From a bacterium (GTDB lineage Bacteria; Spirochaetota; Spirochaetia; Treponematales; Rectinemataceae): a DNA stretch of 37,905 nucleotides. Position numbers and translations under genes: made by a program. The stretch covers positions 1 through 37,905 of the forward strand of contig JAJXVS010000003.1 in NCBI GenBank assembly GCA_021782015.1. The letters are read 5' to 3'. Below are positions 10,662-35,294 of the stretch, one piece after another. Positions within the stretch are counted from its first letter, which is position 1, and each line of letters starts with the position of its first letter. The notes below the pieces were generated by a model. It was given only the letters and a program-made list of their open reading frames with translations, made no database searches and had not been told where the DNA came from.

Positions 10662-10919
10662 ATGCCGACCATCAGACCTATCTCTGAGCTACGAAATAAC
10701 TTCTCGCAGATTTCTGAGATCGTCCATTCGGATGACGAACCCATCTTCCTCACGAAAAATGGCATAGGCGACATGGTCGTCATGTCGATTGATCTTTATG
10801 AACGGCAGATAGCCCAAATTGATCTCTATCAAAAACTTGCCGAGGCCCGCCAGGAAATTGCCAATGGCGCAAAGGGCAGAGACGCTGGCTCCTTCATTCA
10901 AGGGCTCATGCAGGCATGA
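10662..10919 (+). CDS. Phd/YefM-family antitoxin
   Basis: MPTIRPISELRNNFSQISEIVHSDDEPIFLTKNGIGDMVVMSIDLYERQ: classic YefM/Phd fold start. Overlaps the downstream toxin ORF (ATGA). Confidence 0.9.
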   Translation: MPTIRPISELRNNFSQISEIVHSDDEPIFLTKNGIGDMVVMSIDLYERQIAQIDLYQKLAEARQEIANGAKGRDAGSFIQGLMQA

Positions 10920-11224
10920 CTGATTCAGATTACAGGGTCCTCATCTTCCCAAAAGCCGAGGAAGATATTCGAGACACAAAGTACTACCTCGAAAACAAAC
11001 TGAAGACATCGGCCAAGCCTTTGCTTGAAAAGATCATGAAGCACATTGCCATGATCGAAGAAAATCCGTTCATATTTCCCATACTAAGTGACCCATACCT
11101 CAATCAGCTGGGATATCGGATGATCCCAATAGACAACTTCATTCTATTCTATGTTGTGAAAGACAAGGAAGTCCAAATTCATAGATTCATCTTCGGCCGA
11201 AGGAACTATCAGCTACTCTTTTGA
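10916..11224 (+). CDS. RelE/ParE-family toxin
   Basis: YRVLIFPKAEEDIRDTKYYLENKLKTSAKPLLEKIMKHIAMIEENPFIFP...YRMIPIDNFILFYVVKDKEVQIHRFIFGRRNYQ. Confidence 0.9.
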   Translation: MTDSDYRVLIFPKAEEDIRDTKYYLENKLKTSAKPLLEKIMKHIAMIEENPFIFPILSDPYLNQLGYRMIPIDNFILFYVVKDKEVQIHRFIFGRRNYQLLF

Positions 11225-11362: not shown

Positions 11363-12571
11363 ATGAAGGAAGAATTGCTTCCCCGGCCCCGCTACATCGA
11401 CCGGGCAGGCCCCTGGGTTGGAACCACGCTCATCAAGGTTCTCACCGGTCAACGCCGCGTCGGCAAAAGCTCGATCCTGCGCAACCTCGCATCGATCTAT
11501 GGCGCGGAGCAACCGGAACTTCGCCTGGTATTCATAGACAAGGAGCTTTCGGAATGGGACCAGGTCCGCGATGCTGCCAGTCTCGAGAAGGCCGCCGCCT
11601 CGGAAAAGGGGGAGCGCGTCGCTCTCTTCATCGACGAGGCCCAGGAGATCCAAGGTTTCGAGCGGGCCCTTCGCAGTCTGGCCGCCGACGGTCTTCATGA
11701 CATTTGGGTGACCGGCTCGAACGCCCGTCTCCTCTCCGGCGATATCGCCACCCTTTTCGCCGGGCGGACCGCGACCCTCCGTGTCCGCGCCCTCGATTAC
11801 GCCGAGTTCCTCCGCTTCCACGGCCGGGAGGACTCCGACGAGAGCCTCGCTCTTTACCTGCGCTACGGCGGCCTTCCCTTTCTCAGAAATCTCCGGCTCG
11901 CCGACGAGACGGCCTTCGAGTATCTACGCGGGGTCTTCGACGCGATAGTCCTCAAGGACATCGTCCAGCGCCACGGTGTGCGCAATCCGGCCATTCTGGC
12001 GCGCATCGTGGAGTTCCTCGCCGATTCCATCGGCAGCCCCGTTTCCGCGCGTAACGTCGCCAACTACCTGAAATCGAAGGGCATCGACGCCTCGCCCCAA
12101 ACCATCCTCGACTATTTCGGACACCTCGCCGATGCCTACAGCATCAATCGCGTTCGCGCGGAGGACCTCCAAGGCAAACGCCTTCTCGAATCGGGCGACA
12201 AGTACTATTTCGAGGACCTCGGCCTGCGGAGCGTCGCGCGGGGCTTCGACCAACGCGACATCGGCAAGATCGTTGAGAACGCGGTCTATCTCAAACTCGC
12301 ATCGGAGGGCTGGGAAATCAAATCGGGCCGCGTGGGAGACCGGGAGATCGACTTCGTCTGCGAGCGCGGCGGCAAGCGCATCTATGTCCAGGCGGCCTAC
12401 CTCCTGCCCGACGGACCGACCAGGGAGCGCGAGTTCGGCTCTCTTTTGGCCCTGAGGGACGCCTGGCCTCGCTATGTGGTCTCGATGGACCCCATAAGGG
12501 CCGACATGGAAGGCGTGCTGCATCTGAGTCTGCGGGACTTCCTCCTGAACGGAGAGAGAGTAGGAGAATAG
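11363..12571 (+). CDS. AAA_14 / DUF4143-type ATP-binding protein
   Basis: VLTGQRRVGKSSILRNLA (Walker A), VALFIDEAQEIQGFERALRSL (Walker B), VTGSNARLLSGDIATLFAGRTATLRVRALDYAEFLRFHG, C-terminal nuclease-like GREIDFVC ... KRIYVQAAY. Confidence 0.9.
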   Translation: MKEELLPRPRYIDRAGPWVGTTLIKVLTGQRRVGKSSILRNLASIYGAEQPELRLVFIDKELSEWDQVRDAASLEKAAASEKGERVALFIDEAQEIQGFERALRSLAADGLHDIWVTGSNARLLSGDIATLFAGRTATLRVRALDYAEFLRFHGREDSDESLALYLRYGGLPFLRNLRLADETAFEYLRGVFDAIVLKDIVQRHGVRNPAILARIVEFLADSIGSPVSARNVANYLKSKGIDASPQTILDYFGHLADAYSINRVRAEDLQGKRLLESGDKYYFEDLGLRSVARGFDQRDIGKIVENAVYLKLASEGWEIKSGRVGDREIDFVCERGGKRIYVQAAYLLPDGPTREREFGSLLALRDAWPRYVVSMDPIRADMEGVLHLSLRDFLLNGERVGE

Positions 12572-12609: not shown

Positions 12610-15597
12610 TTAGAGTGGCAGTTCTCTCGCGACAGGTTGGTCTTCTTCCCTCCACCAATCCGGGTTGTCGCCCTTCACCGGACGGTAGGACACGCCCAGG
12701 GCGGCGAAATGTTTTCGCGCGCATTCGATCTTGCGCCTCTCGTCGGGGTGCTGGAGTCGAGCCATGTTCTCGGTTCCCTTGGTTTCGCGGACGAGCTCCA
12801 TCTTGAGTCGGTGTTGCGCGTTCCAGCGCAGTACTCCCCAGTCGGGATTGTAGTTTCCGATCAGGCGAGGGATGCCGATCTTGAAGGTCGGCGGGAATTT
12901 GAAGTAGAGGATCGTCTTGTCGTCCACGCCGTCATTGAGCTGGTGGATGAAGGCGACCTCGTTCTCGGAGTCTTTCTGGACAAGGTCATAGAGGGATCGA
13001 TCTCCGTGCCCGGCGACCAATTCCTTCGCGGGATACTCTTTGGAGGGCGGAAAGACCCTCTCGATATCGCGCATATCCACATCCTCTTTCTGGGTATATT
13101 CCAGGCGGTCGGTGATATGGTCGGCGAGGGCTTCCCGAATCGTTCCGATGAAGACGGAGGCGAAGCCCTCCGGATTCACTATGAATTGCTTCTTTCGCGC
13201 CTCTCCAAGACCTTTCCAGATTTCGAGAATGGTCGAGCGCGTGAGCGAGAGCTCCTCGGAGGCGCGCTCCATCAGGTTCGGCTTCGGCAAGGAGCCCGGC
13301 TCTTCGGCCACTTTTCGGGTCGAGCAGGACTGACCCTTCTCGGTGCTGAATACGATCGGCTTGTCCGGGCCGAGGATGCCGCCCTCCGAAAATTCGACGG
13401 AGGCCGAATCGCCCCTTCCCTTCACCTCGGTGACCTTAAAGGGTTTCAGGACCGGCTCGGCGAGCGCCTTGGCGAGGTCGCTGCCCTTCTTGACATCGTG
13501 CGTGGAATCCGAAACCTCGCCATTGCTCGAATTCTTCCGGATTCTGATCCGCGCGACCGTTCCGTCAGCCTCTTCGAGATCGATGCGCCAGTCGCTGATC
13601 ACATAGACGCCTTTAGTTATGACGATATGGGGAACAGGGTAGGCCGCGTTCTCGAGCCTGGCGACGGACTCGACTACCAAGGTCTCGGTATCGATGAGAA
13701 TCCGGTATTCCGTGCGCCGCACGAGCTTGTTCCAGAAGTTCTTGAAGTCGAGGGACTTGTAGACGCGGTCATTGCGCATGGCCGTGGCCTTGGCGCGGTA
13801 ATCCGCCGGCTGTTCGGGCGCCTGGTCGCCCGAATCGACATACTCCTTCTGGAGGCGAGCCACGTAGTTCGCGTAGCTGTCGTTCGCGACCACCGTGAGG
13901 AGATTGAGGCGGCGGTCCATGATCCGCCTGCCATCCTGGGTGACCGGTAAGCGGAGCCCCCTGCCGATCGTCTGGCGTCTCGCCTTTTCCGAGCTGATCT
14001 CGCGGAGGGCGCAGATCTGAAAGACATTCGGATTGTCCCAGCCCTCGCGGAGGGCCGAGTGGGCGAAGATGAAGGAGACGGGCTCCTCGAAAGAAAGGAG
14101 CTGCCCCTTTCGCTTCATGATGAGGTCGTAGGCGATCTTCTCCGCCTTCTTGTCCTCCTCGGTCTTGGCATCATCCTCCAAGGCCGTGTCGACTTCGGCA
14201 TCCGTCGCGTTCACCTTCTTCTTCGCGAAGTAGCCTTCTCGGACCTGGGCCGCGGAATAGCGGCCAAACCAAGAGTCGCCGTCTTTGAGGCGCTCGAAGG
14301 CCTCGTCGAATAGGCGGCGGATGATGGCGTCGTCGCCCTTGTAGCTCGAAACCCGGTCCACGAAGAAGAGCGTGAGCACTTTTACATTCTGGTCTTTGAG
14401 CTCGCGCTGCTTGGAGAAATGGACGAGGATGGTCTCCTCGATCTGGCGCTTGAAGAGCGCCTCCCTGACCAAGGCGGCGTTGCGCTCACCCTCGAGCTCG
14501 CAGCGCTCTCCATTCGCGAAGGCGACAAAGCCGTCGGCTCTATTGATCTCCTCGATCACCCAGCCGGCATAGGCGGGGTTCCCCGTCTTTGCAGCGAGAT
14601 CGGCATGGGCGCCGAGGGTCATCTCGATTTCGACCAAGGCCCCTTCGGCCATCGCCATGAGGCGAAAAAGGGCCGAGAGGCTCTTGTCGATCGAAACGAG
14701 CCTGAGCCAATCGGGTCGGGCGGCCGTACTCTGCGCCTCCACGAGGCCGAGAACCTCGATCTTCTTAACTAGGTTCTTCTCGAAGGCCTTGAAGGGCGTG
14801 AGCTTGTGAATGACATTGGGCGCCTCGCGACCTGGAGTCGCGGAGAAGTTCAGGGCAAAGAGTGGCTTCAGGGTCCGCAGGGCCGCCTTGGCCTTGAGCG
14901 ACGCGTAGTTCTGGGACTCGTCAAGGATGAGTATGGGCCTCGTCTCCTGGAGGTACTGGTAGGGAAGGAGGTTGCCCGGAAGATTGTCGGGCTTCTTGAA
15001 GACCTTGTTCGACTTCTTGTTGAAGGAATCGAGCGTGATCACGAGGATCTCGACGAATTCGGAGGTGGCGAAATTCTTGAGGTCCTGGACGTTCCCGTCG
15101 TAAGGAAGGGCTGTCACGTTCTCGTTGCCGTAGAGGCCCTTGAAGTGCTCCCTCGTGTCCTTGAGGGCGCCCGCCACGCCTTCCCAGATCGCCACGCTCG
15201 GGACAACTATGATGAACTTTCCGAAGCCGTAACGCTTGCGGAGTTCGTAGATGACTCTCAAATAGACATAGGTCTTCCCCGTGCCGGTCTCCATCTCCAC
15301 GGTGAAGGAGGGGTATTCCCAGGTGTCGCCCGAGATCCCTTCCACCATGAAGCCCGAATCCAGCTCTACCGTCATGCTCTCGGGAAGCTCGCCCTCCCTC
15401 TGGACGGCCTGGAGATTGTCGAGGAGCCAGCTCGCCTCGAGGCTGTACCAGGTCGGCAGGTTCGGGACGATGTCCTCGAGCTGCCTTCCCGAGGAGGTGT
15501 CGTAGCGCGAAAGCCCCTCAAAGACCCCGATGACGCTCCCGACGGCGGCGAGCTGGTGTTCCTGGTCGGCCTCGTACTTGATCGTGACAGAATTCAT
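12610..15597 (-). CDS. Type III restriction endonuclease subunit (Res; DEAD/DEAH helicase + PD-ExK nuclease)
   Basis: FTVEMETGTGKTYVYLRVIYELRKRYG, ILILDESQNYASLKAKAAL, SALREGWDNPNVFQICALREISSEKARRQTIGRGLRLP; C-terminal NPDWGVL...ELVRETKGT (PD...ExK). Confidence 0.93.
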   Translation of the reverse strand: MNSVTIKYEADQEHQLAAVGSVIGVFEGLSRYDTSSGRQLEDIVPNLPTWYSLEASWLLDNLQAVQREGELPESMTVELDSGFMVEGISGDTWEYPSFTVEMETGTGKTYVYLRVIYELRKRYGFGKFIIVVPSVAIWEGVAGALKDTREHFKGLYGNENVTALPYDGNVQDLKNFATSEFVEILVITLDSFNKKSNKVFKKPDNLPGNLLPYQYLQETRPILILDESQNYASLKAKAALRTLKPLFALNFSATPGREAPNVIHKLTPFKAFEKNLVKKIEVLGLVEAQSTAARPDWLRLVSIDKSLSALFRLMAMAEGALVEIEMTLGAHADLAAKTGNPAYAGWVIEEINRADGFVAFANGERCELEGERNAALVREALFKRQIEETILVHFSKQRELKDQNVKVLTLFFVDRVSSYKGDDAIIRRLFDEAFERLKDGDSWFGRYSAAQVREGYFAKKKVNATDAEVDTALEDDAKTEEDKKAEKIAYDLIMKRKGQLLSFEEPVSFIFAHSALREGWDNPNVFQICALREISSEKARRQTIGRGLRLPVTQDGRRIMDRRLNLLTVVANDSYANYVARLQKEYVDSGDQAPEQPADYRAKATAMRNDRVYKSLDFKNFWNKLVRRTEYRILIDTETLVVESVARLENAAYPVPHIVITKGVYVISDWRIDLEEADGTVARIRIRKNSSNGEVSDSTHDVKKGSDLAKALAEPVLKPFKVTEVKGRGDSASVEFSEGGILGPDKPIVFSTEKGQSCSTRKVAEEPGSLPKPNLMERASEELSLTRSTILEIWKGLGEARKKQFIVNPEGFASVFIGTIREALADHITDRLEYTQKEDVDMRDIERVFPPSKEYPAKELVAGHGDRSLYDLVQKDSENEVAFIHQLNDGVDDKTILYFKFPPTFKIGIPRLIGNYNPDWGVLRWNAQHRLKMELVRETKGTENMARLQHPDERRKIECARKHFAALGVSYRPVKGDNPDWWREEDQPVARELPL

Positions 15598-15608
15598 GCT
15601 TGTCCTCG

Positions 15609-15662
15609 TCGATCGTTACAAAAATCGGGGGAAAATGTAACGATCGAGAGGGATCGTTACAT
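15609..15662. promoter_or_regulatory. Three-copy operator-like repeat immediately upstream of res
   Basis: tcgatcgttaca (15609-15620), its perfect inverted copy tgtaacgatcga (15636-15647), and a third copy gatcgttacat (from 15652), all within 50 bp of the res start codon at 15597. Confidence 0.6.
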
Positions 15663-15686
15663 CCCGCGTGCAACAGGATGCTAGCC

Positions 15687-16136
15687 TCATGGCTCGTCCG
15701 TCGATATAGCAAGAAACACGCGGAGCTTCAGCGCCTCGTTCATGTCATACTCGTCATGGATGACCGCCTCGATGACATCGTGAAGGAGTTCCTTGTCGAT
15801 CCTTCCGGCCGCGACATGGTAGCTGATGTTTTCCATCTCTGCGATGAATGACGGCACCCGAAAGACATAGCCATTCTTCAGGAGCATGTCGGCGCTGAGG
15901 GAGATGGCGATCCTTTTGTTCCCGTCAAGGAAGCAGTGGAACTTGTTCGAGCAGAAGAAGAGGTGTGTCAGCTTGTCGACAAGGGTGGGGTAGTAGACAT
16001 CGTTCCGGATATGGGCGAGGACGCTTTCGAGCTGCGCGATGTCGCGGTAGCCTAACAACCCCCCTCCCGACACCTCGATCGTCCTAGCGTGGATTGCGAG
16101 CGCCTGCTGCAGGTCGGGATAGATGATCTCCATCAA
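15687..16136 (-). CDS. Doc/Fic-fold death-on-curing family protein
   Basis: Fic/Doc motif HCFLDGNKRIAISLSADMLLKNGY; N-terminal Doc-like LQQALAIHARTIEVSGGGLLGYRDIAQLESVL. Confidence 0.9.
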   Translation of the reverse strand: MMEIIYPDLQQALAIHARTIEVSGGGLLGYRDIAQLESVLAHIRNDVYYPTLVDKLTHLFFCSNKFHCFLDGNKRIAISLSADMLLKNGYVFRVPSFIAEMENISYHVAAGRIDKELLHDVIEAVIHDEYDMNEALKLRVFLAISTDEP

Positions 16137-17176
16137 TCCCTTTCCTTGAGGCGCCTGAAGACATCCTTCGCCTCCTCAAGCCGCTCGGAGAGCTCCTTGC
16201 TCTTTTCCCCGAGGAAGCGCTCGAACTCCTCCGCTTTGAGCGGCGTCACGTATTCGGTGAGCTGCTTGTGGAGGGCGTCGCGGAAGGCGAGGTCCCGGCT
16301 CGCCATCTTGTTCCGAGCCCGCTCGACCAGGGGACGCCAATGTGCCTGGGCCTCGAACAGCTTGAAGAGCTCGTCGGTCTCCCAGCTCGTCAGCTTGCGG
16401 CCAAGAGCGTCGGCTTTCTTGCGGATCTCGTCCCCAAGACCACATTCATACGAAGCGACGAGGTCGAGGATTTCTGCGTAGAAGGTGTCGCGAACCGCGT
16501 CCTTCTCGTGAAGCCTGAGCACCTTGCGGTACTCCTGGGCGTTCTCCCGGAAAATGCTCACATAGATCTTGTCGGTGTAGAGGGGGTACTTGAAGTTCCC
16601 CATCGCCACGCAATCACGGAGAGCATCTGTGAATTCCTTGCGGTAGTTCTCCTCCACGAAGGCGGCATGGATAAAGTCCTCGTCCCTCTGGTTGATGTAC
16701 TTTGTCCCGCCTCCTGTGCGGCGGTTAATCGTGTCCATGACAATATCGAGGATGGCCGTCCGGAGGAGCCTGGCACGTTCGCTTTCGGTGATCAGCATGC
16801 CGATATCGAGGAAGGCTCGGAAGTCGAAAACCGCGAGCTGGGGGGCCCGTGCGATGTTCCCGAAATCTATTTCGGGAACATGCTGCGATTTCAAGGCTAA
16901 TTTCAATTCTCGCAAGGCTTTTCCTCGCAAAATCCTGTAGCCATTCGCCTTGAGCTCGGCTTCGCGGCTGGAAAGATAATTCTCTATCGTCCTTACACTT
17001 ACCTCAAAGAAAGCGGCGACCTGCTCCTTGAGGAGAAGGCGCCGTCCCTCGAATTCGATCGTCGTGACGGAGGCTGCCTTTTCGATTTCCGCGAGGGCAT
17101 AGGGGTTGTTGAGGATGTTCTGGCGGACGACCTCGGAATCGGGCAGCCCGCCAATAGCGGTCTCGGCATCGCTCAT
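16133..17176 (-). CDS. HTH DNA-binding protein (RhuM-like) associated with the type III R-M operon
   Basis: RRLLLKEQVAAFFEVSVRTIENYLSSREAELKANGYRILRGKALRELKL resembles a RhuM-type DNA-binding start. Overlaps mod (17173-17176) and doc (16133-16136) by 4 nt. Confidence 0.65.
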   Translation of the reverse strand: MSDAETAIGGLPDSEVVRQNILNNPYALAEIEKAASVTTIEFEGRRLLLKEQVAAFFEVSVRTIENYLSSREAELKANGYRILRGKALRELKLALKSQHVPEIDFGNIARAPQLAVFDFRAFLDIGMLITESERARLLRTAILDIVMDTINRRTGGGTKYINQRDEDFIHAAFVEENYRKEFTDALRDCVAMGNFKYPLYTDKIYVSIFRENAQEYRKVLRLHEKDAVRDTFYAEILDLVASYECGLGDEIRKKADALGRKLTSWETDELFKLFEAQAHWRPLVERARNKMASRDLAFRDALHKQLTEYVTPLKAEEFERFLGEKSKELSERLEEAKDVFRRLKERD

Positions 17177-19077
17177 ATCGTTTTAATTAGTCCCTTATCC
17201 GCGAGACCCGACTTGAGCTCGTCGCCCACGGCCTGGTCAAGGCAGATGAAGGCCTCGTTGTCCTTGAGGACGAGGGCGCCAACCGTCTCCTCGTCGAGCC
17301 TGTCGTCCAGGCAGACGAGGAGGACCTTCTCATGGAAGTCCGAGGTGACTTCTCGGATGCAGTTCTTCGTGAACTCCGGCCTCTCGCGAACCATCGAATG
17401 GAGGGGATAGCCCTCTAGAAGAAGGATCTCGGTGAAGAGCCCGTCGGCCACCGCCTTCCAGGTCGGCACGAGAGGCGTCACCGCCTGCGTGAAGAGCTCG
17501 TCGAGCCTCGCGATGTCCTCGCCATGGTAATCCTCCCAGCTCTTGAAGTTCGACTGGACGAGCTTGTACACCTTAAAACCGAGGTCGGGCGCGGCCTCGC
17601 CTTCGCCGGCAAAGAGCTCGCCCGCCGTGGAAGGAGCTTTTTCCTTCTCGGCCTTGATCTTCTTGATGACGCGGCGGATGCGCTCCTTGCCGATTTCGGC
17701 AATCGTTGCGTAGCCCGCCTTGGCCGCCTCGGAATCGGCAGGCACCTTCTCGGGCATCTGGACGAGAATGAATTTGCGATTGCCTCCGTCTTCCTTGTTC
17801 AGGTCGAGGACGGCGTGGGCTGTGGTGGCGGAGCCGGCGAAGAAGTCAAGGACTATTGAGCTATCGTTTGTGGCAATTTGTAGCATCCTATTTATTAAGG
17901 TTTTTGGTTTTGGGGTATCAAACACGCTCTGTTCTGAAAAAATCTCATTTAGCGATTTCTTTGCGTCATCGTTCGTGCCAACCTCTTCGGCCGTCCAAAG
18001 GGTCTGTGGAGTTAAGCCGGTTGCGATTTCAGAAAAGAAAGCCTTTTCTCGAGGAACATTATTCCCGTCTTCGCCGAACCAAATGCGGTTATCGGTGGTC
18101 ATCTCCATAAAACGCTCTTTTGTCACTATCCAGCATCTACCTGTTGGCGGCTGTATTATTCGTCCTCCAGGCGTTGTGATATCATAAAATTGACTCTTGG
18201 TAGCATGTCCAGCTTGTGCATTTAGCGATACCGATTGCCATGGACCCCGTGGGTCATTATCAGGATTCGAGTACCGTCTTTTCACTTCCTCTGTTAGTGG
18301 TAATAAGTTGCGGCTTTCTTCAAATTGCGGCTTAGTTCTGGAATAGCAGCAAATATGCTCGTAATTGAAGGAAAACACTCTTCGGTTTTCACGCGTTGTT
18401 CGCTTTTCCCAGCCGAAGGTCGCGATGAAATTTTCCTCCCCAAACACCTCATTCATAAGCATCCTGAGGTGGTGGACCTCGTTGTCGTCAATGCTTACGA
18501 AGATAACCCCGTCATCCATGAGGAGTTCGCGGGCAAGGCGGAGGCGGGGATACATCATCGAGAGCCACTTGGAATGGAAGCGACCGTCGGACTTCTTGTT
18601 CGTCGTAGTGGGCCGGCCCTCGCCGTCGAGCTGGCCGCTGCGCTTCAGGTAGTCCTTGAGGGGCTCGGTGAAATCGTCGTCGTAGACGAAGTCGTTGCCG
18701 GTGTTGTAGGGCGGGTCGATGTAGATCATCTTGACGCGGCCCGCGTAGCTCTTTCTGAGGAGCTTCAAGACCTCGAGGTTCTCGCCCTCGATGAAGATGT
18801 TCGAGCTCGTCAACTCGTCCATCCCCTCGCCAGGGCAGGGGACGAGGGTGCCTGAGGATGGGCGGCTCGCGAGGCGCCGGGCTTCGCGCTTTCCCGGCCA
18901 GGAGAGGCCGAAGTGCTCCGCATCGTCGCCCTCCTCCCCGAGGAGTCCCTCGAGGGCCCCTTTAAGAACGGACCAATTGATATTTCCGTCTGAAAAGGCC
19001 TCGGGAACCTGGTCTTTCAGGATGGCGAGGCGCTCCTCGTCGATGAAGGATCCTGGCTTGAGTCGCTCAATAGGCAT
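17173..19077 (-). CDS. Type III restriction-modification DNA methyltransferase (Mod)
   Basis: MIYIDPPYNTGNDFVYDDDF (motif IV), FHSKWLSMMYPRLRLARELLMDDGVIFVSIDDNEVHHL, SSIVLDFFAGSATTAHAVLDLN (motif I), in the beta-class order IV-TRD-I. Confidence 0.94.
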   Translation of the reverse strand: MPIERLKPGSFIDEERLAILKDQVPEAFSDGNINWSVLKGALEGLLGEEGDDAEHFGLSWPGKREARRLASRPSSGTLVPCPGEGMDELTSSNIFIEGENLEVLKLLRKSYAGRVKMIYIDPPYNTGNDFVYDDDFTEPLKDYLKRSGQLDGEGRPTTTNKKSDGRFHSKWLSMMYPRLRLARELLMDDGVIFVSIDDNEVHHLRMLMNEVFGEENFIATFGWEKRTTRENRRVFSFNYEHICCYSRTKPQFEESRNLLPLTEEVKRRYSNPDNDPRGPWQSVSLNAQAGHATKSQFYDITTPGGRIIQPPTGRCWIVTKERFMEMTTDNRIWFGEDGNNVPREKAFFSEIATGLTPQTLWTAEEVGTNDDAKKSLNEIFSEQSVFDTPKPKTLINRMLQIATNDSSIVLDFFAGSATTAHAVLDLNKEDGGNRKFILVQMPEKVPADSEAAKAGYATIAEIGKERIRRVIKKIKAEKEKAPSTAGELFAGEGEAAPDLGFKVYKLVQSNFKSWEDYHGEDIARLDELFTQAVTPLVPTWKAVADGLFTEILLLEGYPLHSMVRERPEFTKNCIREVTSDFHEKVLLVCLDDRLDEETVGALVLKDNEAFICLDQAVGDELKSGLADKGLIKTI

Positions 19078-19086
19078 GGGTTCTCC

Positions 19087-19890
19087 TCATTCTTCCTCGC
19101 GCAGGTTGCCGTCGATGAAATCCTCGGGGCTCGATTCGCTGCCGTAGTCGTCCAGCCAGCGTCTGAAACTCGAGTTGCCCCCCTCGCCCCGCACATGGGC
19201 GCGGAAGCTCGGGCACGAAAACCGAATGTCGCAGTTGCGACAGGTCTTCCAGGCGAAGATGTTGCGCTCGCCCTCTTCTTTTTCCTTGAGCCGCGAAGGC
19301 GGCGGCGCCTCGAAGCGGCCAGCCTCGATCGCCTCGACGGTACGGCCGAAGTCCTCGATCATCGCCTCCACTTCTTCCTCACTGTAACCCAAGGGAATCA
19401 CGGGATCCCAACCGGCGAGCTCTCTCTCCATTCCCTCCGCGCTGCCTGAGCGGATCGCGGCCTTGAGGCCCTGGGGCAGGGCGGTGGAGATGAGGGCGCA
19501 GTTGTCGAGCTCGTTCCCGCGAAGGCCCTTGTAGATATGGGCGTAGACGTTGAGCTGGGCCCGGTAGGAATCGAGGTTCGCCTCGATCGCCGCGCGCTCG
19601 GGCGTCTTCAGGTCGTACATCCAGGTCTCCTCGCCCTCCCTCACGATGTCGACGACGCCCTCGAGGCTGTAGCGAATGCCGCTTTCGGGGCTCCGACACT
19701 CGGGGAGGACGAGGTGGACCTCGGTCTCCGTGACCCTTTCGGCGATGGCCCGGTTCTTCTTCCAGTACCAGAGAACCTGCTGGAAGGCCTGTTCCTTGAC
19801 GAAATCGGTCACTACGTGACCGCCTTCGACCTTGAGGAATTCGTAGTTCTCCTCGAAGAGGGCGCGGATCTCCTGTTCGTCAAGGTTCAT
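19087..19890 (-). CDS. PD-(D/E)XK nuclease, RecB/AddB/Cas4-like, C-terminal part with Cys cluster
   Basis: LEGVVDIVREGEETWMYDLKT (D...DLK), YRAQLNVYAHIY (QxxxY), WKTCRNCDIRFSCPSF (CxxCx5C). Confidence 0.85.
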   Translation of the reverse strand: MNLDEQEIRALFEENYEFLKVEGGHVVTDFVKEQAFQQVLWYWKKNRAIAERVTETEVHLVLPECRSPESGIRYSLEGVVDIVREGEETWMYDLKTPERAAIEANLDSYRAQLNVYAHIYKGLRGNELDNCALISTALPQGLKAAIRSGSAEGMERELAGWDPVIPLGYSEEEVEAMIEDFGRTVEAIEAGRFEAPPPSRLKEKEEGERNIFAWKTCRNCDIRFSCPSFRAHVRGEGGNSSFRRWLDDYGSESSPEDFIDGNLREEE

Positions 19891-22502
19891 GGCTTGTCTC
19901 CCGTGGCGGCGGCCCCGGCCTCAGCCTCTGCCTTGGCCATGACAAGGTGGTGGAGGTCTTCGATCGTCTCATGGACGAGGCGGCCGAAGAACATGGACTG
20001 GCCGCGGGAGGGGACGAAGCCGTACTTGCGGAAGGCCATGTAATTCCTTGGGCATTTGCGGTAGGGAAGGTAGTCGCCGGTGAAGCTGTAGCTTCTCCCC
20101 TCTTTGTCGGCCTCCTCCCGCGCAGCGGGCAGGGTGGCCGGGTCCAGCTCCGCAAGGGTGGGCAGGCTGGCACATTCGAAGATTTCCTTGAACGCCGGGC
20201 TGGCCGCCTTGGCGTGGGTGAAGCGGGGAAGGATGAGGAGGCTGCGGGCGCGGGAGAGGGCCACATAGAAGGCGCGCATCGTATCGAAGCCGTCGGTCCT
20301 GTCCAGCGGCTCGCCATCGCGGCCTGAAAGTTCCCGCATCGTCGTTTCGATGCGGGACGCCTCACGAGGCTCGCGGTACACCGAGCCGAGCACGACGACG
20401 GGGAACTCGAGGCCCTTGGCCTGGTGGATTGTCAGGAAGGGGACGCGGCCCTTGGGAAAGGGGTCGTCCACGTTCTCGTACTCGGACTCACCGAGGCGGA
20501 AGAGGGCGTAGAGGTAGGACGAGAAGAAGGCGTTGACGAAGCGGTCTTCCACGAGGTTCTGGCCCGCGATGACAGGGCCGTATTCCTCGGTGTAGCGGGC
20601 GAGGTATTGGGTGATGAGCCCGAGGTTGCAGATCGGTCCCTCGTCCCGGCCGCTCTCGGCCTCCTCGTAGGCCGAGCGGAAGCAACTAAAACCATTCAAT
20701 TGGTAGAAAAGATCAAGAACGCCCCAATCCATTGCGGTTACGCGGTTGAGAAGGTAGCGGAGGCGAAGGGGCGAGCCTTCCATCTGTCGCTTTTTGATGA
20801 GTTCGTTGACGCCGTGGGACTGGAGGGCCTTTTGCACGCGGAGGGAGAGCGAGGCTTCCTTGGCGATCCTCTGCGGAAGGCCCGGCTGGACTGTGGATTC
20901 GAGGTCGAGGCCGCGGCTCTCAGCCCACGAGAGGAGGGTCGTGTAATCCGCGGCAGCTTCATCCAATTCGGCCCGCCGCTCGCGGACAAAGGAGCGAAGG
21001 AGGGGATCGGCGGCGGTCAGTTCTTCAGCGCGGGCGCGGCAGGCGGCCATCCAGTCCTGGAACTCCCGGAATCCGGCGCTCGCGTCGCCCCGCTCCCTGT
21101 GCCGAGGGCGACCGAACACTTCCTGGCAGAGGCCGAAAAAGACGCGGGCCTCCTCGACTTCAAGAAAGCGGCCTGCACGTGGCGCGTAGTACGGAATCTC
21201 CGCTTCCTTGAGCGCCTCGATGAAGCCATGGACGCGGCTGTTCATCCCGCCAAAGCCCTTCATGGCGGGAAAGAGGAAGGCGGCCTGGTTGTAGTCCGAG
21301 ATCGCCCCGCTCTCGCGGAGTCGCTTTATGGAGGCGACGATCTCCCGGTAGACATCCTCGGCCTTGGCGTGGCTCGACGTGACCACCGCCGTCCCCTCGT
21401 CCGCGCTCGCGGCGACGATTCCCTTGTCCGCGATCCTCCACGCGCCGAGGGGGCTTTCGGGTCGCGACCAGTCCGCGCGGCGGATGAAATCGGAATAGAG
21501 ACCGACGATGGCCTTTCGCGAGCGATAGTTGACGTTGAGGTCGATCCTCCGCGGCGCCACACCGAGCCGGGCCGCGCAACGGCTTTCGAAGTCGACGAGG
21601 TTTTCGACGGTCGCCCCGCGGAAGCGGTAGAGCGCCTGATCATCGTCCCCGACCACGCAGAGCTTGCGGCTTCCCGATGCGAGGGCGAAAAAAAGGGCCT
21701 CCTGGATCGCGTTCGTGTCTTGGTACTCGTCGATGATGACATGGTCGAAGACGCTGCCCGCCACGGCGCTCTGGGCAAAGCGGCCGTATGCCGCCTGCTG
21801 GAGGAGGGAAAAATCGACGCGCTCCGTCGCCTTCCCCGTGGCCAGGTCGCGCTTGTAGCGGGCGTACATTCGAAGCAGGGATTTGAGCGTTTCGTCCCCT
21901 GTCGCCGTTTCGGCCCCCTGCCAGTTTTCCTCGGATAGGCGGTTGAAGAAGGCCATGCAAGCCTGGACGGCATGGTGGCGGGAATAGGAGTCGCTGCCCT
22001 GCATCCAGGCGTTGATCGCCCTCTGGGCCGACTCCTCATCCGGGAAGCCTCCCTCCTTGATGAGCTCCGCCCAATACCGGCGATTGTAGAGCATGAAGTA
22101 TTGCCCTAGCTCATCGAGGAGGACAGGAGCCCTCTTACGGGATTGCGAGTCGCTGAATCGCCTATCCACCAGGAACTTCTGGCAGAGCGAGTGGACGGTG
22201 CCGATCGAGATGCTCGAAAGGTCATAGGCCTTCCCGGTCTCATTGGTGACCAGGGCGAGGAGGGCCAGGAGACCTTCTTTGAGTTGTCGGGCTGCCTTTT
22301 CGGTAAAGGTGGCGAGCATGATGCGGGAAGGAGCCACATCCCGAAAGACCAGTAGGTTGAGGGTTCTCCATAAGAGCACGTGGGTCTTTCCAGAACCGGG
22401 TCCCGCCGTCAAGAACAGCGGGCCGTCTTCGTGGATGATGGCCGCGCGCTGGGCATCATTCGGATGGAATTCCCTCTTTTTGAATAGTGATTCCAAATTC
22501 AT
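19887..22502 (-). CDS. UvrD/PcrA-like superfamily 1 ATP-dependent helicase with N-terminal half of a RecB-type nuclease domain at its C-terminus
   Basis: MNLESLFKKREFHPNDAQRAAIIHEDGPLFLTAGPGSGKTHVL (Walker A), VIIDEYQDTNAIQE, CVVGDDDQALYRFRGA, FLTIHQAKGLEFPVVVLG, MRAFYVALSRARSLL. C-terminus DYLPYRKCPRNYMAFRKYGFVPSRGQSMFFGRLVHETIEDLHH. The listed ORF runs to 22718; ATG 22502 fits the family start. Confidence 0.92.
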   Translation of the reverse strand: MNLESLFKKREFHPNDAQRAAIIHEDGPLFLTAGPGSGKTHVLLWRTLNLLVFRDVAPSRIMLATFTEKAARQLKEGLLALLALVTNETGKAYDLSSISIGTVHSLCQKFLVDRRFSDSQSRKRAPVLLDELGQYFMLYNRRYWAELIKEGGFPDEESAQRAINAWMQGSDSYSRHHAVQACMAFFNRLSEENWQGAETATGDETLKSLLRMYARYKRDLATGKATERVDFSLLQQAAYGRFAQSAVAGSVFDHVIIDEYQDTNAIQEALFFALASGSRKLCVVGDDDQALYRFRGATVENLVDFESRCAARLGVAPRRIDLNVNYRSRKAIVGLYSDFIRRADWSRPESPLGAWRIADKGIVAASADEGTAVVTSSHAKAEDVYREIVASIKRLRESGAISDYNQAAFLFPAMKGFGGMNSRVHGFIEALKEAEIPYYAPRAGRFLEVEEARVFFGLCQEVFGRPRHRERGDASAGFREFQDWMAACRARAEELTAADPLLRSFVRERRAELDEAAADYTTLLSWAESRGLDLESTVQPGLPQRIAKEASLSLRVQKALQSHGVNELIKKRQMEGSPLRLRYLLNRVTAMDWGVLDLFYQLNGFSCFRSAYEEAESGRDEGPICNLGLITQYLARYTEEYGPVIAGQNLVEDRFVNAFFSSYLYALFRLGESEYENVDDPFPKGRVPFLTIHQAKGLEFPVVVLGSVYREPREASRIETTMRELSGRDGEPLDRTDGFDTMRAFYVALSRARSLLILPRFTHAKAASPAFKEIFECASLPTLAELDPATLPAAREEADKEGRSYSFTGDYLPYRKCPRNYMAFRKYGFVPSRGQSMFFGRLVHETIEDLHHLVMAKAEAEAGAAATGDKP

Positions 22503-22626
22503 ACTACGAAGGATTCTCTCGCACCCTCGAGCTTCTGTCAATTCGCGAAGTGCCCGGAGGGTCTGACCCTTGGGTAGAACCGATCGCCGCGAACAGCCTC
22601 GCCAAATCCAAAAGGGGGGTAGCGGA

Positions 22627-26477: not shown

Positions 26478-26661
26478 GCAAAGGTTCATGGATCGATAGG
26501 TCTAGATTCTATCCAGAATGGCCCGAGGGGGGGCGCGGGCCGAGGTGGCCGGCGTGGGGCCGAGCGACGCGTTGGCGCTGCAAGCCGATGTGGGGCCGAG
26601 CGCCGCGCCGCGGGTTGGCCAAATGGCCCCGGCTGCCGATAATGATGTGGGAAGGTACGCC

Positions 26662-29013
26662 ATGATGAAACGACGAGTTCTCGCCTGCGCGATCGCAGGC
26701 CTCATCGCCTCGGGGCTCGGGGCCGATGTGACGTTCAAAGGACCCGATTTCTCGACGACGGGAACGTTGCTCTTCGGCGCCAATTTTGCGCTGCCGGGCG
26801 GCGATTCCTATGACGCGCTCTTCGCGGCCGATCCCGCGAGCGGCGACATTCGCAGTCTGAGCTTCTATCCCGAATCGATGAGTCTCGTGGACAGCGGTCG
26901 CCGCCTGGAGATCCGCAATCGCTTCGGGCTCTACCGGACGGACAACGACTTCGCCAATCCCGAGGCCGTGCCCGGTTTCCCCGGTTTCGAGCGCGGTTCT
27001 CCCATCGTGAGCGGCAACCTGCCTCCCTCGGCGACGAGTCCCGACGGGGTTTGGGTCCTGCTCGCCGAGGCCAGCTCGGCGGCCTATGGGCGCCTCGTGC
27101 TCTACGATACTCGCTCGGGAGCCCGCAGCGTCGTCGTCGAAGGCATCGAGTATTCCGTCAACCGGGTCCATGCCCGCTGGTCGCCCGACTCGCGCTATTT
27201 CGTCTACGCCAAGTCAGGTTCCATCTATTATTACTCCATCGAGCAGCTCGCGGCCTCGCGCGTGATCGACGAGGGGTATCGCCGCATCGGTCCCGGCCGC
27301 GTCGAGGCCGTGCGCTGGGCCCTCGACGGGAGCCTTTACTATCTTCGCGATACGGCCCTCTACCGCGTCCTTCCGGCCGAATTCTTTACGCAGGCCCTCT
27401 ATCAGGGCATTGCCGGCATGGGGAGCCTGGCCGGCAAGCTTCCCTTTCCCTTCGATCCGAATTTCGACGAGTACTGGGTGGGCGCCGACGGCCAGCGCAT
27501 CATTTTTTCCAAGGGCGGCCGCAATCTCTTCCTGATCTACCTCAATCCCGATGATTATGGGTCGAAGGCCCGCGTGGCGGCCCTTCCTTATCTGTTTTTG
27601 CAGGGTGGAACGAGGGTTCGCGATGTGCTCTGGCCCGCTTTGGGCCAGGTGACCGTACTTACGGGAACGATCAGGGGGGGGGAGGTGACAACCGGGGCCT
27701 GGCGCTTCGACGCCCCCGCCGATCCTTCGCAGCTGGGGCTCGCTCCCAAGGTGGCAGAGCTCGACGCCGGCGGCGCTGTCGAGGCTCGGCTTTCTCCTGA
27801 TGGATCGAAGGTCGCGCTTGCGGGGGCTTCGGGTGTCGTCGTCCGCGATTATGACAGCTGGAAGCCCCTCGCCACGCTGCCTACGGCCAACTCCTTTCAT
27901 GTGCTGTGGCGTGACGACAGCAAGCTCGTCATCGGCAGCCGCGATTATATTCAGGGCTGGGATCTTGGTTCGGGCGATGTGACGACGATCGCCCTGTCGC
28001 GCGTAAAGGATTTCGGCTGGTCAGACGACGGGTCGATCGTCGCGAGTGTGGGTGCTACGACCTGGCGGCGCGACCCGCCACCCCTCGGGCAGAAGGCGCA
28101 GAGCAAGATTTCGGTCTCGGGTCAGTCGGGGGTTCCGGTTTCGTGGACCAAGGCGAACCTTCCGGGGCACCGGGATGCCTCGACGGTCGCTCCGGACTGG
28201 CGGGTCTACCTGGACAATCTCGCCGCGGGGCCGTATCGGAATATCGTGATGATCAGGGATATCAAGGGTCTCGGCACCACTTCGCTCTTTCCCATCCCGA
28301 AAAACACCTGGGCGGCCTTTCCCGCCACGGACGACCCCCGCGATCCGAATCTCTTCGATCATGGCTCGCGCATTCGGCGACGGGAGGTCGCCCTGACCTT
28401 CGATGCCCTCGATTCGGCCGACGGCCTCGTGAGCGTCCTCGGCAGCCTCGCCGAAAACGGGATCAAGGCCACCTTCTTCGTGAATGGCGAGTTTGTGCGC
28501 CGCGATCCCGGGGCGTCGCGACTTCTCGCCGATTCGGGCCAGGAGATCGGCTCGATGTTCTTTACCGCCATCGATCCGACCGACGCCCGCTTCGGCAACG
28601 ATCGGAATTATGTGCGGCGCGGACTCGCCCGCGCCGAGGATCTCTGGTTCCACGCGACGGGCAAGGAGCTTTCGGGGCTGTGGCACACGCCCTGGTACAC
28701 GACCAATTCGGAGGTGACCGCCGCCGGGCTCTCGATGAATTATCTCTATGTCGGCCGCGACATCGATCCGTTGGACTGGGTGGGGAGGAGCGACGCGACT
28801 CGAATGCCGGGGGCCTATCGCTCGTCCCACCGCATTGTGGAAGACATCATGGCGAAAGTTAAGCCCGGTTCCATCATTCCCATTCGAATCGGGGTGCCCG
28901 ATGGGGGGAGGGATGATTACCTTTTCAACGAACTGCCCCTCCTGATCGACGATCTTCGGAGCGAAGGGTATGGTATCGTGCCCATTTCGACTCTGATGAG
29001 CCATGCAGAATAG
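26662..29013 (+). CDS. Secreted beta-propeller (TolB/WD40-like) protein with C-terminal polysaccharide-deacetylase-like domain
   Basis: Signal peptide MMKRRVLACAIAGLIASGLGA; propeller-like repeats (DGVWVLLAEA, WSPDSRYFVYAKSGSIYYYS, LSPDGSKVALAGASGVVVRD). NodB-like C-terminus REVALTFDALDSADGLVSVLGSLAENGIKATFFVNGEFV. RBS-like ggaagg precedes ATG 26662. Confidence 0.75.
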   Translation: MMKRRVLACAIAGLIASGLGADVTFKGPDFSTTGTLLFGANFALPGGDSYDALFAADPASGDIRSLSFYPESMSLVDSGRRLEIRNRFGLYRTDNDFANPEAVPGFPGFERGSPIVSGNLPPSATSPDGVWVLLAEASSAAYGRLVLYDTRSGARSVVVEGIEYSVNRVHARWSPDSRYFVYAKSGSIYYYSIEQLAASRVIDEGYRRIGPGRVEAVRWALDGSLYYLRDTALYRVLPAEFFTQALYQGIAGMGSLAGKLPFPFDPNFDEYWVGADGQRIIFSKGGRNLFLIYLNPDDYGSKARVAALPYLFLQGGTRVRDVLWPALGQVTVLTGTIRGGEVTTGAWRFDAPADPSQLGLAPKVAELDAGGAVEARLSPDGSKVALAGASGVVVRDYDSWKPLATLPTANSFHVLWRDDSKLVIGSRDYIQGWDLGSGDVTTIALSRVKDFGWSDDGSIVASVGATTWRRDPPPLGQKAQSKISVSGQSGVPVSWTKANLPGHRDASTVAPDWRVYLDNLAAGPYRNIVMIRDIKGLGTTSLFPIPKNTWAAFPATDDPRDPNLFDHGSRIRRREVALTFDALDSADGLVSVLGSLAENGIKATFFVNGEFVRRDPGASRLLADSGQEIGSMFFTAIDPTDARFGNDRNYVRRGLARAEDLWFHATGKELSGLWHTPWYTTNSEVTAAGLSMNYLYVGRDIDPLDWVGRSDATRMPGAYRSSHRIVEDIMAKVKPGSIIPIRIGVPDGGRDDYLFNELPLLIDDLRSEGYGIVPISTLMSHAE

Positions 29014-29031
29014 GGACCAACTGGAGGACAG

Positions 29032-31944: not shown

Positions 31945-32026
31945 AGAAAAGTAACCTTGCCAAGGATGGCGGGCGCAAGTACCATCAGTGCGACAGGTAT
32001 ACTGTCGCAAAAGTCAGGGAGGAAGC

Positions 32027-33556
32027 ATGGCGGCACAGGAACTCGTGGTCGACGTACCCCGTATCAAGAAGGCGGCGCATAACGCGATACCGCTCACCGT
32101 GACCTCCTACACCCTTCCCCACGAAATGGAAGTCTATGTCTCCGAGGTCCTCGAGGTTTTCCTGGTCGAGCTCGGCCAGGCCCGCCTCAAGGACTACCTC
32201 GTCTACTGCCTGCGGGAACTCGCCGTCAACGCCAAGAAGGCCAACACCAAGCGTGTGTACTTCGAGTCGCGGGGCCTCGATCTCGATAGCTCCGACGACT
32301 ACGAGGAGGGCATGAAGTCCTTCAAGGACGACACCCTCGACAACATCCAGGTCTACCTCCAGAAGCTCAAGGAGAAGGGCTTGTATGTGAAGATAATATT
32401 CCATGCCCAGGGCCAGAACATAAAGATCGAGGTGCGCAACAACGTCGAGATAACCAAGGCCGAGTATCTCCGCATCCACGACAAGCTCGCGCGCTCGCGC
32501 ATGTACGCCAGCCTCGAGGAGGCGATGGCGAGCGTTCTCGACCCCACCGAGGGCGCGGGCCTCGGCATCGTCATACTCGTACTTATGCTGAAGAAAATGG
32601 GGCTTTCCGAGGACTGCTTCGACATCTGGGCCGAGAACGGCGAGACGGTGGCCCGCATCACGGTGCCCTTCGCCGAGGCCCGCGTCGAGAGCCTCGACCT
32701 GCTCACAGAACAGATCGTGAACTCGATCACGAGCCTGCCCCAGTTCCCCGACAACATCAACCAGATCCAGCGCCTCATCAACGATCCCAACAGCCAGATG
32801 ATCGACATCGCGCATTACATCGCGACCGATCCCGCGCTGACCGCCGACCTCCTCAAGCTCGTCAACTCGGCCGCCTTCATGATGTCCAAGCGCGTCAACG
32901 ACATCGTCGAGGCCGTCAAGCTCGCAGGCCTCAAGCAGATCAAGATGCTGCTCTACTCCTATGGCACCCTCAAGATTCTCGGCGACAATACGGAAGACCG
33001 GAAGAAGCTCTGGGAGCACAGCTATCGCGCGGCCTATTACGCCTTCAATCTCGTCCGCAACTTCAAGCCCAGCAACAAGGCCCTCCTCGACGACGCCTAT
33101 GTCTCGGGCATGCTCCACGACATGGGAAAGATCATCTTCCAGGAGGTCCATCCCAGCCTCCTCGACAAGATTCGCGCCTTCTGCGTCGAAAAGGGCATTC
33201 CGGCGAACACCTTCGAGGATCTCGCCGGGGGAATGAACCACGCCGAGATTGGGGCGCGGATCGCCGAAAAATGGAACTTCCCCGAGTCCCTCGTGTCCGC
33301 CATCCGCTGGCACCACATGCCGGCCAATGTGCCGGCCCAGCACAAGGATGTCTGCTATACCGTCTATCTCGCGAACGTGTTCTGCGAGTATGAGGCCGGA
33401 ACCATGACCTGGGAGCAGATCGACCCCCAGGTTCTCGGTGATTACCGGATTTCGAGCGATGTCCAGCTCAAGCAGGTCGTCGGCCAGCTCTCCGAGGGCT
33501 TCAAGCAGGAATCGCGGCGCTTGGCCAGGGAAAACGCCGCGGCGGCGAAACGGTAG
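32027..33556 (+). CDS. HDOD-domain protein with N-terminal HATPase-like domain
   Basis: HDOD segment ITSLPQFPDNINQIQRLINDPNSQMIDIAHYIATDPALTADLLKLVNSAAFMMSKRVNDIVEAVKLAGLKQIKMLLYSYG. N-terminal YCLRELAVNAKKANTKRVYFE (N-box-like) and PTEGAGLGIVILVLMLKKMG (G-box-like). RBS gggagg before ATG 32027. Confidence 0.8.
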   Translation: MAAQELVVDVPRIKKAAHNAIPLTVTSYTLPHEMEVYVSEVLEVFLVELGQARLKDYLVYCLRELAVNAKKANTKRVYFESRGLDLDSSDDYEEGMKSFKDDTLDNIQVYLQKLKEKGLYVKIIFHAQGQNIKIEVRNNVEITKAEYLRIHDKLARSRMYASLEEAMASVLDPTEGAGLGIVILVLMLKKMGLSEDCFDIWAENGETVARITVPFAEARVESLDLLTEQIVNSITSLPQFPDNINQIQRLINDPNSQMIDIAHYIATDPALTADLLKLVNSAAFMMSKRVNDIVEAVKLAGLKQIKMLLYSYGTLKILGDNTEDRKKLWEHSYRAAYYAFNLVRNFKPSNKALLDDAYVSGMLHDMGKIIFQEVHPSLLDKIRAFCVEKGIPANTFEDLAGGMNHAEIGARIAEKWNFPESLVSAIRWHHMPANVPAQHKDVCYTVYLANVFCEYEAGTMTWEQIDPQVLGDYRISSDVQLKQVVGQLSEGFKQESRRLARENAAAAKR

Positions 33557-33568
33557 GAATTCGGCCTT

Positions 33569-33590
33569 TTCTCATCTTCTTCTCATCTTC
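33569..33590. promoter_or_regulatory. Exact 11-bp tandem direct repeat, OmpR/PhoB-type operator candidate
   Basis: ttctcatcttc ttctcatcttc, two adjacent 11-bp units upstream of the small ORF at 33643. Confidence 0.5.
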
Positions 33591-33642
33591 TGGAAGTACT
33601 TTGATAGATGTCACGGGATGAAACCCGCGCAAAGGAGATGTC

Positions 33643-33840
33643 ATGAGCATTCAGGGAATCCATGGGCAGAGCCAGCTCCAAGCCTCAGGCCAGGCGATGG
33701 CTGCGGCCGCCTCGGCTCCCGCTTCCGAGGAGAGCCGCGAAGGCGCCGCGGAACGGGCGAGGGAAAGTTCCTCGTCGGCCGCCGGCGGTCTGGGCCAGCT
33801 CCAGGCCTATCAAGGCTCCAAGATCGACCTCATGGCCTAG
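33643..33840 (+). CDS. Small uncharacterised protein (65 aa)
   Basis: Strong RBS aaaggag spaced correctly before ATG. MSIQGIHGQSQLQASGQAMAAAASAPASEESREGAAERARESSSSAAGGLGQLQAYQGSKIDLMA*. Followed by a strong terminator. Confidence 0.65.
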   Translation: MSIQGIHGQSQLQASGQAMAAAASAPASEESREGAAERARESSSSAAGGLGQLQAYQGSKIDLMA

Positions 33841-33860
33841 TCTCCTCCTCCCCTCCTCCC

Positions 33861-33901
33861 GCCGCCGTCCGATTCCCTCCTCTGGACGGCGGCTTTTTTT
33901 T
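33861..33901 (+). terminator. Rho-independent terminator
   Basis: gccgccgtcc (33861-33870) / ggacggcggc (33884-33893), perfect 10-bp stem followed by eight T. Confidence 0.9.
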
Positions 33902-34081
33902 GTCCGGGCGATCGGAGCGGGTGTGCGGTCTGGGCGCGGTGGCGCGGTCGAAGTCTCCGGCGGAATTCGGGGCCTTCTCATCGCTCCTTCATACTACATA
34001 GCTAATTTAGCTATCGGACGGCGTTGGCCGCCCTAGCGCAAAGTCTTAGGATGCGTCACCGCATCCGCAAGGAGAGACATC

Positions 34082-34510: not shown

Positions 34511-34585
34511 GGTTCCGGGAGGGGGAGGCCACGCGCCCCCTCCTCCTTGCGAGCCCGGTCCGGTTGACGGAATACTCAAAGCAGT

Positions 34586-35266: not shown

Positions 35267-35294
35267 CGGGGCCGACGGGCCGACTGGGAGAAAG

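What the first reader, a model, noticed from the sequence alone, without database searches (positions are those of the whole stretch)
12610..22502. Six-gene composite operon: helicase, nuclease, type III Mod, HTH, Doc, Res
All six genes are on the minus strand. Three junctions have 4-nt ATGA overlaps (19887/19890, 17173/17176, 16133/16136) and one has a 9-nt gap. A standard type III R-M system needs only mod and res. Here an SF1 helicase-nuclease module precedes mod, and an HTH + Doc pair sits between mod and res. This suggests an expanded defence system in which the helicase-nuclease could degrade DNA after Res cleavage and Doc could act as a fail-safe abortive-infection toxin. I do not recognise this exact six-gene arrangement as a named system, but I cannot search.
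Basis: partly seen in the sequence, partly recalled or inferred. Interest (0 to 1): 0.75.

Follow-up and report, generated by a model that had tools for sequence, protein, structure and literature searches.

The report
Six-gene type III restriction-toxin operon
A spirochaete genome carries a DNA-restriction system that has been given two add-ons, a helicase-nuclease whose cutting domain is split between two genes and a growth-arresting toxin with its DNA-binding partner; each part is already catalogued, but the split nuclease and the full set are a new variant whose function nobody has tested.

Summary
The six genes are real, intact and in the order reported. A second genome (L003/L089, Spirochaetaceae UBA6076) keeps the same six at 61-74% identity. 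So the stated refutation fails, but most parts are already described. Mod and Res are EcoP15I-like type III R-M. Helicase plus nuclease are a two-gene form of the UvrD-Cas4-like protein that Hudaiberdiev 2017 found most often beside type III Mod/Res. HTH-Doc is PADLOC's candidate PDC-M59; PDCs come from a 'guilt-by-embedding' search.

New here: (1) The gene break falls inside the nuclease domain. The first Fe-S cysteine and motif-I histidine lie on the helicase; D, DxK and three cysteines lie on the second gene. This split recurs in six spirochaete loci and predicts an obligate two-chain nuclease. (2) The operon is modular: relatives have Hel-Nuc-Mod-Res without HTH-Doc, and HTH-Doc sits in EcoP-like operons with SNF2 or DrmD-like helicases, beside other defence genes, or alone in prophages and satellite phages. 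(3) An operator-like array (TGTAACGATC x3) lies between doc and res, conserved in the second six-gene locus.

Best model: type III R-M with an end-processing helicase-nuclease and an embedded regulator-toxin guard cassette. No step is experimentally shown.

The parts
19887..22502 (-). Hel: SF1 UvrD-like helicase (871 aa) whose C-terminus carries the first part of a Cas4/AddA-type nuclease domain (first Fe-S Cys in CPRNY, motif-I His in FGRLVH)
   Evidence: Pfam UvrD-helicase E 5.8e-49; tree places it in the UvrD-Cas4-like clade, apart from PcrA/UvrD/AddA paralogues; alignment
19087..19890 (-). Nuc: second part of the PD-(D/E)XK nuclease domain (G..D81, D93xK95, Q112..Y116, Fe-S Cys217/220/226)
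   Evidence: Pfam PDDEXK_1 E 9.1e-10; Foldseek best match AddA 4cei/4ceh, probability 1.00/0.99, on a medium-confidence model; alignment with fused homologues
17173..19077 (-). Mod: type III DNA methyltransferase (DPPY motif)
   Evidence: PADLOC MTase_III E 9.8e-184; phmmer hits 6k0w Mod E 9.9e-77 and EcoP15I Mod 4zcf E 3.8e-61
16133..17176 (-). HTH protein (PDC-M59A), N-terminal winged HTH plus helical region, KilA-N/antirepressor-like fold; probable regulator/antitoxin
   Evidence: PADLOC PDC-M59A E 2e-99; Foldseek to KilA-N-type viral proteins and DdrC; 59-sequence alignment
15687..16136 (-). Doc (PDC-M59B), Fic/DOC toxin with the kinase-type motif HCFLDGNKR; start TTG 16136 or ATG 16133
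   Evidence: PADLOC PDC-M59B E 1.4e-33; Pfam Fic E 1.7e-10; P1-type Doc 3k33/3dd7 by phmmer; HxFxDGNKR invariant in 55 sequences
15611..15661 (-). Operator-like array between doc and res: TGTAACGATC / GATCGTTACA inverted pair (15661-15636) and a third half-site TGTAACGATC (15620-15611)
   Evidence: same arrangement and spacing in L089
12610..15597 (-). Res: type III restriction subunit with SF2 helicase motor and PD...ExK endonuclease domain
   Evidence: Pfam ResIII and RE_endonuc E 1.8e-24; EcoP15I Res 4zcf_C E 2.4e-43
22513..22541 (-). Candidate sigma-70-type promoter TTGACA-17-GAGAAT just before the Hel ATG
   Evidence: 10 of 12 positions, but 3 sites found against 2.4 expected in shuffles, so weak

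Best explanation
The operon is an EcoP15I-like type III restriction-modification system carrying two add-on modules. Mod methylates host DNA and Res slides along and cuts unmethylated DNA (inferred from homology). Hel and Nuc are two chains of one UvrD-Cas4-like helicase-nuclease. The nuclease active site and its predicted Fe-S cluster can form only when both chains associate. The likely job is to unwind and degrade phage DNA from the ends that Res makes (inferred). HTH-Doc is a portable regulator-toxin cassette. HTH is the probable antitoxin and DNA-binding regulator, and may act on the TGTAACGATC array just upstream of res. Doc would phosphorylate EF-Tu and arrest translation when HTH is lost or displaced, as a fail-safe (inferred from the Doc family).
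For: Same six-gene order in a second genome with all six at 61-74%. Hel-Nuc-Mod-Res without HTH-Doc (L088) and Hel-Nuc-Mod-IVP-Res (L102) show Hel-Nuc belongs with Mod/Res. The four split-Hel Mods form one supported clade, SH-aLRT 100. Split Hel lies in the UvrD-Cas4 clade. The nuclease motifs complement each other across the two genes in aligned fused homologues. Fused Hel::Nuc-Mod-Res operons occur in other phyla and in the literature. The HTH-Doc pair recurs: most HTH homologues have Doc next door and the Doc motif is invariant. About 24 of 80 HTH loci have a type III Mod directly upstream. Operator-like array conserved between the two six-gene loci.
Against: No expression, phage-challenge, binding or enzyme data exist for any part. 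L082, L103 and L101 show partial or decayed relatives, so the association is not obligatory. HTH-Doc also occurs far from any R-M gene, so its functional tie to this R-M is unproven. HTH lacks sequence similarity to the Phd antitoxin. The operator-like array was found only in two loci and was noticed after the fact.
Confidence: 0.55

Rival explanations
1. Hel-Nuc is a host repair helper. Like RecBCD/AddAB it would process double-strand breaks caused by accidental self-restriction and so protect the host, not attack phage.
For: The domain family is shared with AddA/RecB. Hudaiberdiev 2017 suggested a RecB-like, partly redundant role for the fusion proteins.
Against: It co-occurs with Mod/Res on plasmids and in several phyla, and in G000 it coexists with several UvrD/AddA-like paralogues. 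Repair alone would not need linkage to one R-M type.
Confidence: 0.2
2. HTH-Doc is an autonomous toxin-antitoxin or addiction cassette that merely landed between mod and res. It has no mechanistic link to the R-M.
For: It is found alone in Streptococcus satellite phages and prophage contigs and near unrelated genes. L088 works out as a four-gene operon without it.
Against: It sits in the same mod-res slot in about 20 type III loci across several phyla, usually with tight junctions. The operator-like array precedes res in both six-gene loci.
Confidence: 0.3
3. Plain defence-island clustering: six genes or three modules kept side by side with no joint function.
For: The modules swap freely between loci.
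Against: Overlapping starts and stops, the same order in two genomes, and all six genes at similar identity to their counterparts argue for inheritance as one operon.
Confidence: 0.2
4. The Hel/Nuc split is a pseudogene or assembly frameshift of a fused gene.
For: Fused single-chain homologues exist.
Against: The split is present in six independent spirochaete loci. All catalytic residues are kept, the second gene has its own start, and the relative frames differ between loci (overlap 4 or 8 nt, or a 3-nt gap), so it is neither one sequencing error nor a programmed frameshift.
Confidence: 0.03

Closest known systems
Type III restriction-modification, EcoP15I (PDB 4zcf)
   Same: Mod and Res are clear homologues with intact motifs.
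   Different: EcoP15I needs only mod and res. Here there are four extra genes, with HTH-Doc inserted between mod and res.
UvrD-Cas4-like (pfam12705) helicase-nuclease with type III Mod/Res (Hudaiberdiev 2017, PMC5704561)
   Same: Same helicase clade, same nuclease motifs, same association with Mod/Res.
   Different: There the two domains are fused in one chain. Here the break lies inside the nuclease domain, and the Mod belongs to a different (EcoP-like) branch. Their unfused Clostridiales pairs were described in non-defence contexts.
PADLOC candidate PDC-M59 (M59A + M59B)
   Same: HTH and Doc match both models over nearly full length.
   Different: No experimental function is reported in what I could read. 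The candidate is a two-gene unit, not the six-gene set.
Phd-Doc toxin-antitoxin of phage P1
   Same: Doc fold and kinase-type motif HxFx(D/N)(A/G)NKR.
   Different: The partner is a 347-aa KilA-N-like HTH protein, not Phd; no Fic-inhibition motif was found conserved in it.
AddAB/RecBCD
   Same: SF1 helicase plus Fe-S PD-(D/E)XK nuclease; Foldseek best match AddA.
   Different: Two-gene split of one nuclease domain, embedded in an R-M operon.
DdrC of Deinococcus radiodurans
   Same: Only significant PDB fold match of the HTH model.
   Different: 13% identity, low TM-score, no sequence-level match. This is a lead only.

Membership tests
Type III R-M (EcoP15I-like) | Mod with target-recognition region and N6/N4 methylase motifs (DPPY) | tested here: met
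Type III R-M (EcoP15I-like) | Res with SF2 motor and C-terminal PD...ExK nuclease | tested here: met
Type III R-M (EcoP15I-like) | Mod-dependent, ATP-dependent cleavage at unmethylated sites | not testable with these tools
   needs biochemistry or methylome data
UvrD-Cas4-like family (pfam12705) | Helicase belongs to the fusion-protein clade | tested here: met
   20-row clade, SH-aLRT 99, split Hel inside
UvrD-Cas4-like family (pfam12705) | Cas4-like nuclease motifs and four Cys present | tested here: met
   but spread over two genes
UvrD-Cas4-like family (pfam12705) | Fusion into a single chain | tested here: not met
   two genes with ATGA overlap. It is a split relative, not a member of the fusion type
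PADLOC PDC-M59 | M59A and M59B adjacent | tested here: met
   E 2e-99 and 1.4e-33
Phd-Doc toxin-antitoxin | Doc motif HxFx(D/N)(A/G)NKR | tested here: met
   invariant in 55 sequences
Phd-Doc toxin-antitoxin | Phd/YefM antitoxin partner | tested here: not met
   no Pfam family at 1e-3; no Phd hit even at E 1
RhuM (PF13310) | Profile similarity over the protein | tested here: not met
   only 37 HTH columns, probability 3%; no PF13310 hit
Gabija | GajA OLD-family nuclease next to a GajB UvrD helicase | tested here: not met
   GajB models hit the helicase, but no GajA gene lies in the operon

The most novel reading that the evidence does not exclude
The Hel/Nuc split makes a conditional weapon. 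The shared Fe-S nuclease assembles only on particular DNA ends, and HTH reads the same restriction state through the doc-res operator. Res synthesis, end degradation and Doc-mediated arrest would then be one wired circuit rather than three modules.
Probability: 0.15. Interest if true: 0.75.

Novelty: new variant of a known kind. Interest (0 to 1): 0.45.

Why it matters
It shows that type III R-M operons have at least two add-on slots: a helicase module upstream of mod and an accessory cassette between mod and res. Unrelated parts can be swapped into each. A nuclease domain split inside its catalytic and Fe-S core, and kept so across several genomes, would be a natural two-chain nuclease that can be tested directly. 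The operator-like array gives a concrete first target for the untested candidate PDC-M59A.

Tried and rejected
Hel homologue scan of viral contigs: no relatives. Hel/Nuc homologues in eight other-phylum genomes that carry HTH-Doc: none. HTH as RhuM: rejected. HTH versus PDB by sequence: nothing significant. HTH as DdrC homologue: kept only as a lead, because BFVD hits point to the general KilA-N/antirepressor fold. The TGTAAC element as a general HTH-Doc operator: rejected; it is only mildly more frequent near HTH-Doc in 80 loci (0.37 against 0.23 per kb) and the palindrome appears only in L003. Doc-res hairpin as a simple terminator: less likely, because in L089 two stem positions mismatch while the half-sites and the third, unpaired copy are kept. 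Programmed frameshift at Hel/Nuc: rejected because the frame offset differs between loci. Literature: 'PDC-M59' has no hit in the held library; the PDC source preprint (10.1101/2024.01.29.577857) is known to me only through its citation in PMC12988326.

Full report
What is there. The six genes lie on the minus strand at 22502-12610 and are all open. Hel (22502-19887) is a UvrD-type SF1 helicase, Nuc (19890-19087) a PD-(D/E)XK nuclease, Mod (19077-17173) a type III methyltransferase, HTH (17176-16133) PADLOC PDC-M59A, Doc (16136-15687) PADLOC PDC-M59B, and Res (15597-12610) a type III restriction subunit. Mod and Res match EcoP15I chains in the PDB. Junctions: ATGA overlaps at Hel/Nuc and Mod/HTH, 9 nt between Nuc and Mod, a TTGA (or 1-nt) overlap at HTH/Doc, and 89 nt between Doc and Res.

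Is the arrangement conserved? One scan of genome contigs with HTH gave 80 loci (the cap), most with Doc next door. L003 (Spirochaetaceae UBA6076; the same place was re-fetched as L089, on a contig of the same length) has Hel-Nuc-Mod-HTH-Doc-Res in the same order: 66, 64, 61, 74, 70 and 66% identity. In other spirochaetes the split pair occurs as Hel-Nuc-Mod-Res without HTH-Doc (L088), as Hel-Nuc-Mod-[23S rRNA IVP protein]-Res (L102), at a contig end (L103), and as a decayed copy (L101). So the helicase-nuclease belongs with Mod/Res, while the mod-res interval is an insertion slot.

Helicase plus nuclease are one enzyme. In an alignment with fused homologues, the first invariant Cys and the motif-I His are at the C-terminus of Hel. 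The Asp, the DxK, the QL..YA motif and the last three Cys are in Nuc. Neither gene alone encodes a complete nuclease domain. The break is present in six loci with differing frame offsets (4-nt or 8-nt overlaps, or a 3-nt gap), which argues against a sequencing error or programmed frameshift. A tree puts the six split helicases (SH-aLRT 100) inside one clade with 14 of 15 fused proteins (SH-aLRT 99), apart from the host's other UvrD/AddA-like helicases; the weak fused hit L109 falls outside. The trees are quick searches with midpoint roots, so the direction (fission or fusion) is not shown. The Nuc model has medium confidence (pLDDT 70); its best PDB match is AddA. Hudaiberdiev et al. 2017 (PMC5704561) already reported the fused UvrD-Cas4-like protein, most often beside type III Mod and Res, some with HTH or WYL genes. 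I found the same fused arrangement on plasmids of three phyla and in relatives of Desulfosarcina.

Two different Mod lineages. In a Mod tree, systems with the fused enzyme form one branch (SH-aLRT 100). The four split-Hel Mods form another clade (SH-aLRT 100), nested among EcoP-like Mods whose operons carry SNF2+DUF4391 or DrmD-like helicases upstream of mod, and HTH-Doc between mod and res. Of about 24 HTH loci with type III mod directly upstream, 15 have a helicase gene upstream of mod (my count), and several of the rest are cut by contig ends. This suggests a helicase slot that can hold unrelated motors; that is inference.

HTH-Doc. Doc keeps HxFxDGNKR in all 55 aligned sequences, the form with Lys seen in P1 Doc, which is known (from established work, not tested here) to phosphorylate EF-Tu. 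The HTH partner has no Pfam family. Its AlphaFold model (pLDDT 71, pTM 0.41) resembles KilA-N/antirepressor-type viral proteins and, in the PDB, only DdrC, a DNA-binding damage-response protein. The DdrC match has 13% identity and a low TM-score and is only a lead. The pair also occurs beside HsdM/HsdS, MADS-like, McrB-like and Cas3 genes, in an Ilyobacter plasmid as Mod-Res-HTH-Doc, and alone in Streptococcus satellite phages and viral contigs. PADLOC lists it as PDC-M59. PDCs come from a 'guilt-by-embedding' search (PMC12988326 citing Payne et al. 2024). Embedding of HTH-Doc in an R-M operon is therefore not new.

Operator-like array. The doc-res gap holds TGTAACGATC-N6-GATCGTTACA followed by a third TGTAACGATC near the res ribosome site. 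L089 has the same arrangement and spacing although its proteins are only 61-74% identical. The pattern TGTAAC-N8-16-GTTACA occurs once in the 3.85-Mb window assembly, at this place; twice in UBA6076, once at this place; and not in the two genomes whose operons lack HTH-Doc. By my rough estimate under one match per genome is expected by chance, so the position and conservation, not the mere presence, are the evidence. It was noticed after the fact and is not general to HTH-Doc loci. That HTH binds it is inference.

Mechanism, steps marked. Shown by sequence: complete type III Mod and Res, a two-chain helicase-nuclease, an intact Doc motif, conserved association. Inferred from families: Mod protects host DNA; Res cuts unmodified DNA; Hel-Nuc unwinds and degrades from the resulting ends; Doc arrests translation when HTH fails. 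Speculative: HTH regulates res and couples the toxin to restriction state. No step has experimental support here.

Verdict. A new variant of known kinds: the combination and the intra-domain nuclease split appear undescribed in what I could search, while each module and each pairwise association is already on record. Interest is moderate.

Noticed in passing
window 10662-11224 (+): A Phd/YefM-ParE toxin-antitoxin pair (Pfam PhdYeFM_antitox and ParE_toxin) lies about 1.4 kb beyond the end of the operon.
   Followed up: no
window 11363-12571 (+): AAA_14/DUF4143 ATPase gene convergent with res.
   Followed up: no
L087 6008-6703, L124 12207-12911, L127 5315-6052: A RadC-like JAB gene directly precedes the fused helicase-nuclease in three loci scanned; L123 and L125 have genes of similar size there that were not scanned. 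Suggests a RadC-Hel::Nuc-Mod-Res operon type.
   Followed up: partly
L028, L039, L070 upstream of mod: A DrmD-like SNF2 helicase (L039, PADLOC DrmD E 1.9e-219) precedes type III Mod-HTH-Doc(/Fic)-Res in Chlorobiaceae contigs.
   Followed up: partly
L070 8158-9717, L072 1231-3215: A shortened HTH followed by a SoFic-type Fic gene in place of Doc, between mod and res.
   Followed up: no
L034, L045, L054, L055, L068: HTH-Doc next to a Cas3-like gene (L034 scanned, L045 same cluster) or an EVE-AAA McrB-like gene (L054 scanned, the others same cluster).
   Followed up: no
L120, L121 (Streptococcus satellite phages Javan319, Javan313): HTH-Doc sits beside the integrase; the HTH protein is annotated 'CiaB protein', which looks like a misannotation since it matches PDC-M59A at E 2.5e-106.
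   Followed up: partly
window 26509-37807 (-): A block of nine large minus-strand ORFs with no Pfam match.
   Followed up: no
L108 6863-13490: Fused helicase-nuclease followed by AAA_21 and RloB genes and then mod.
   Followed up: no
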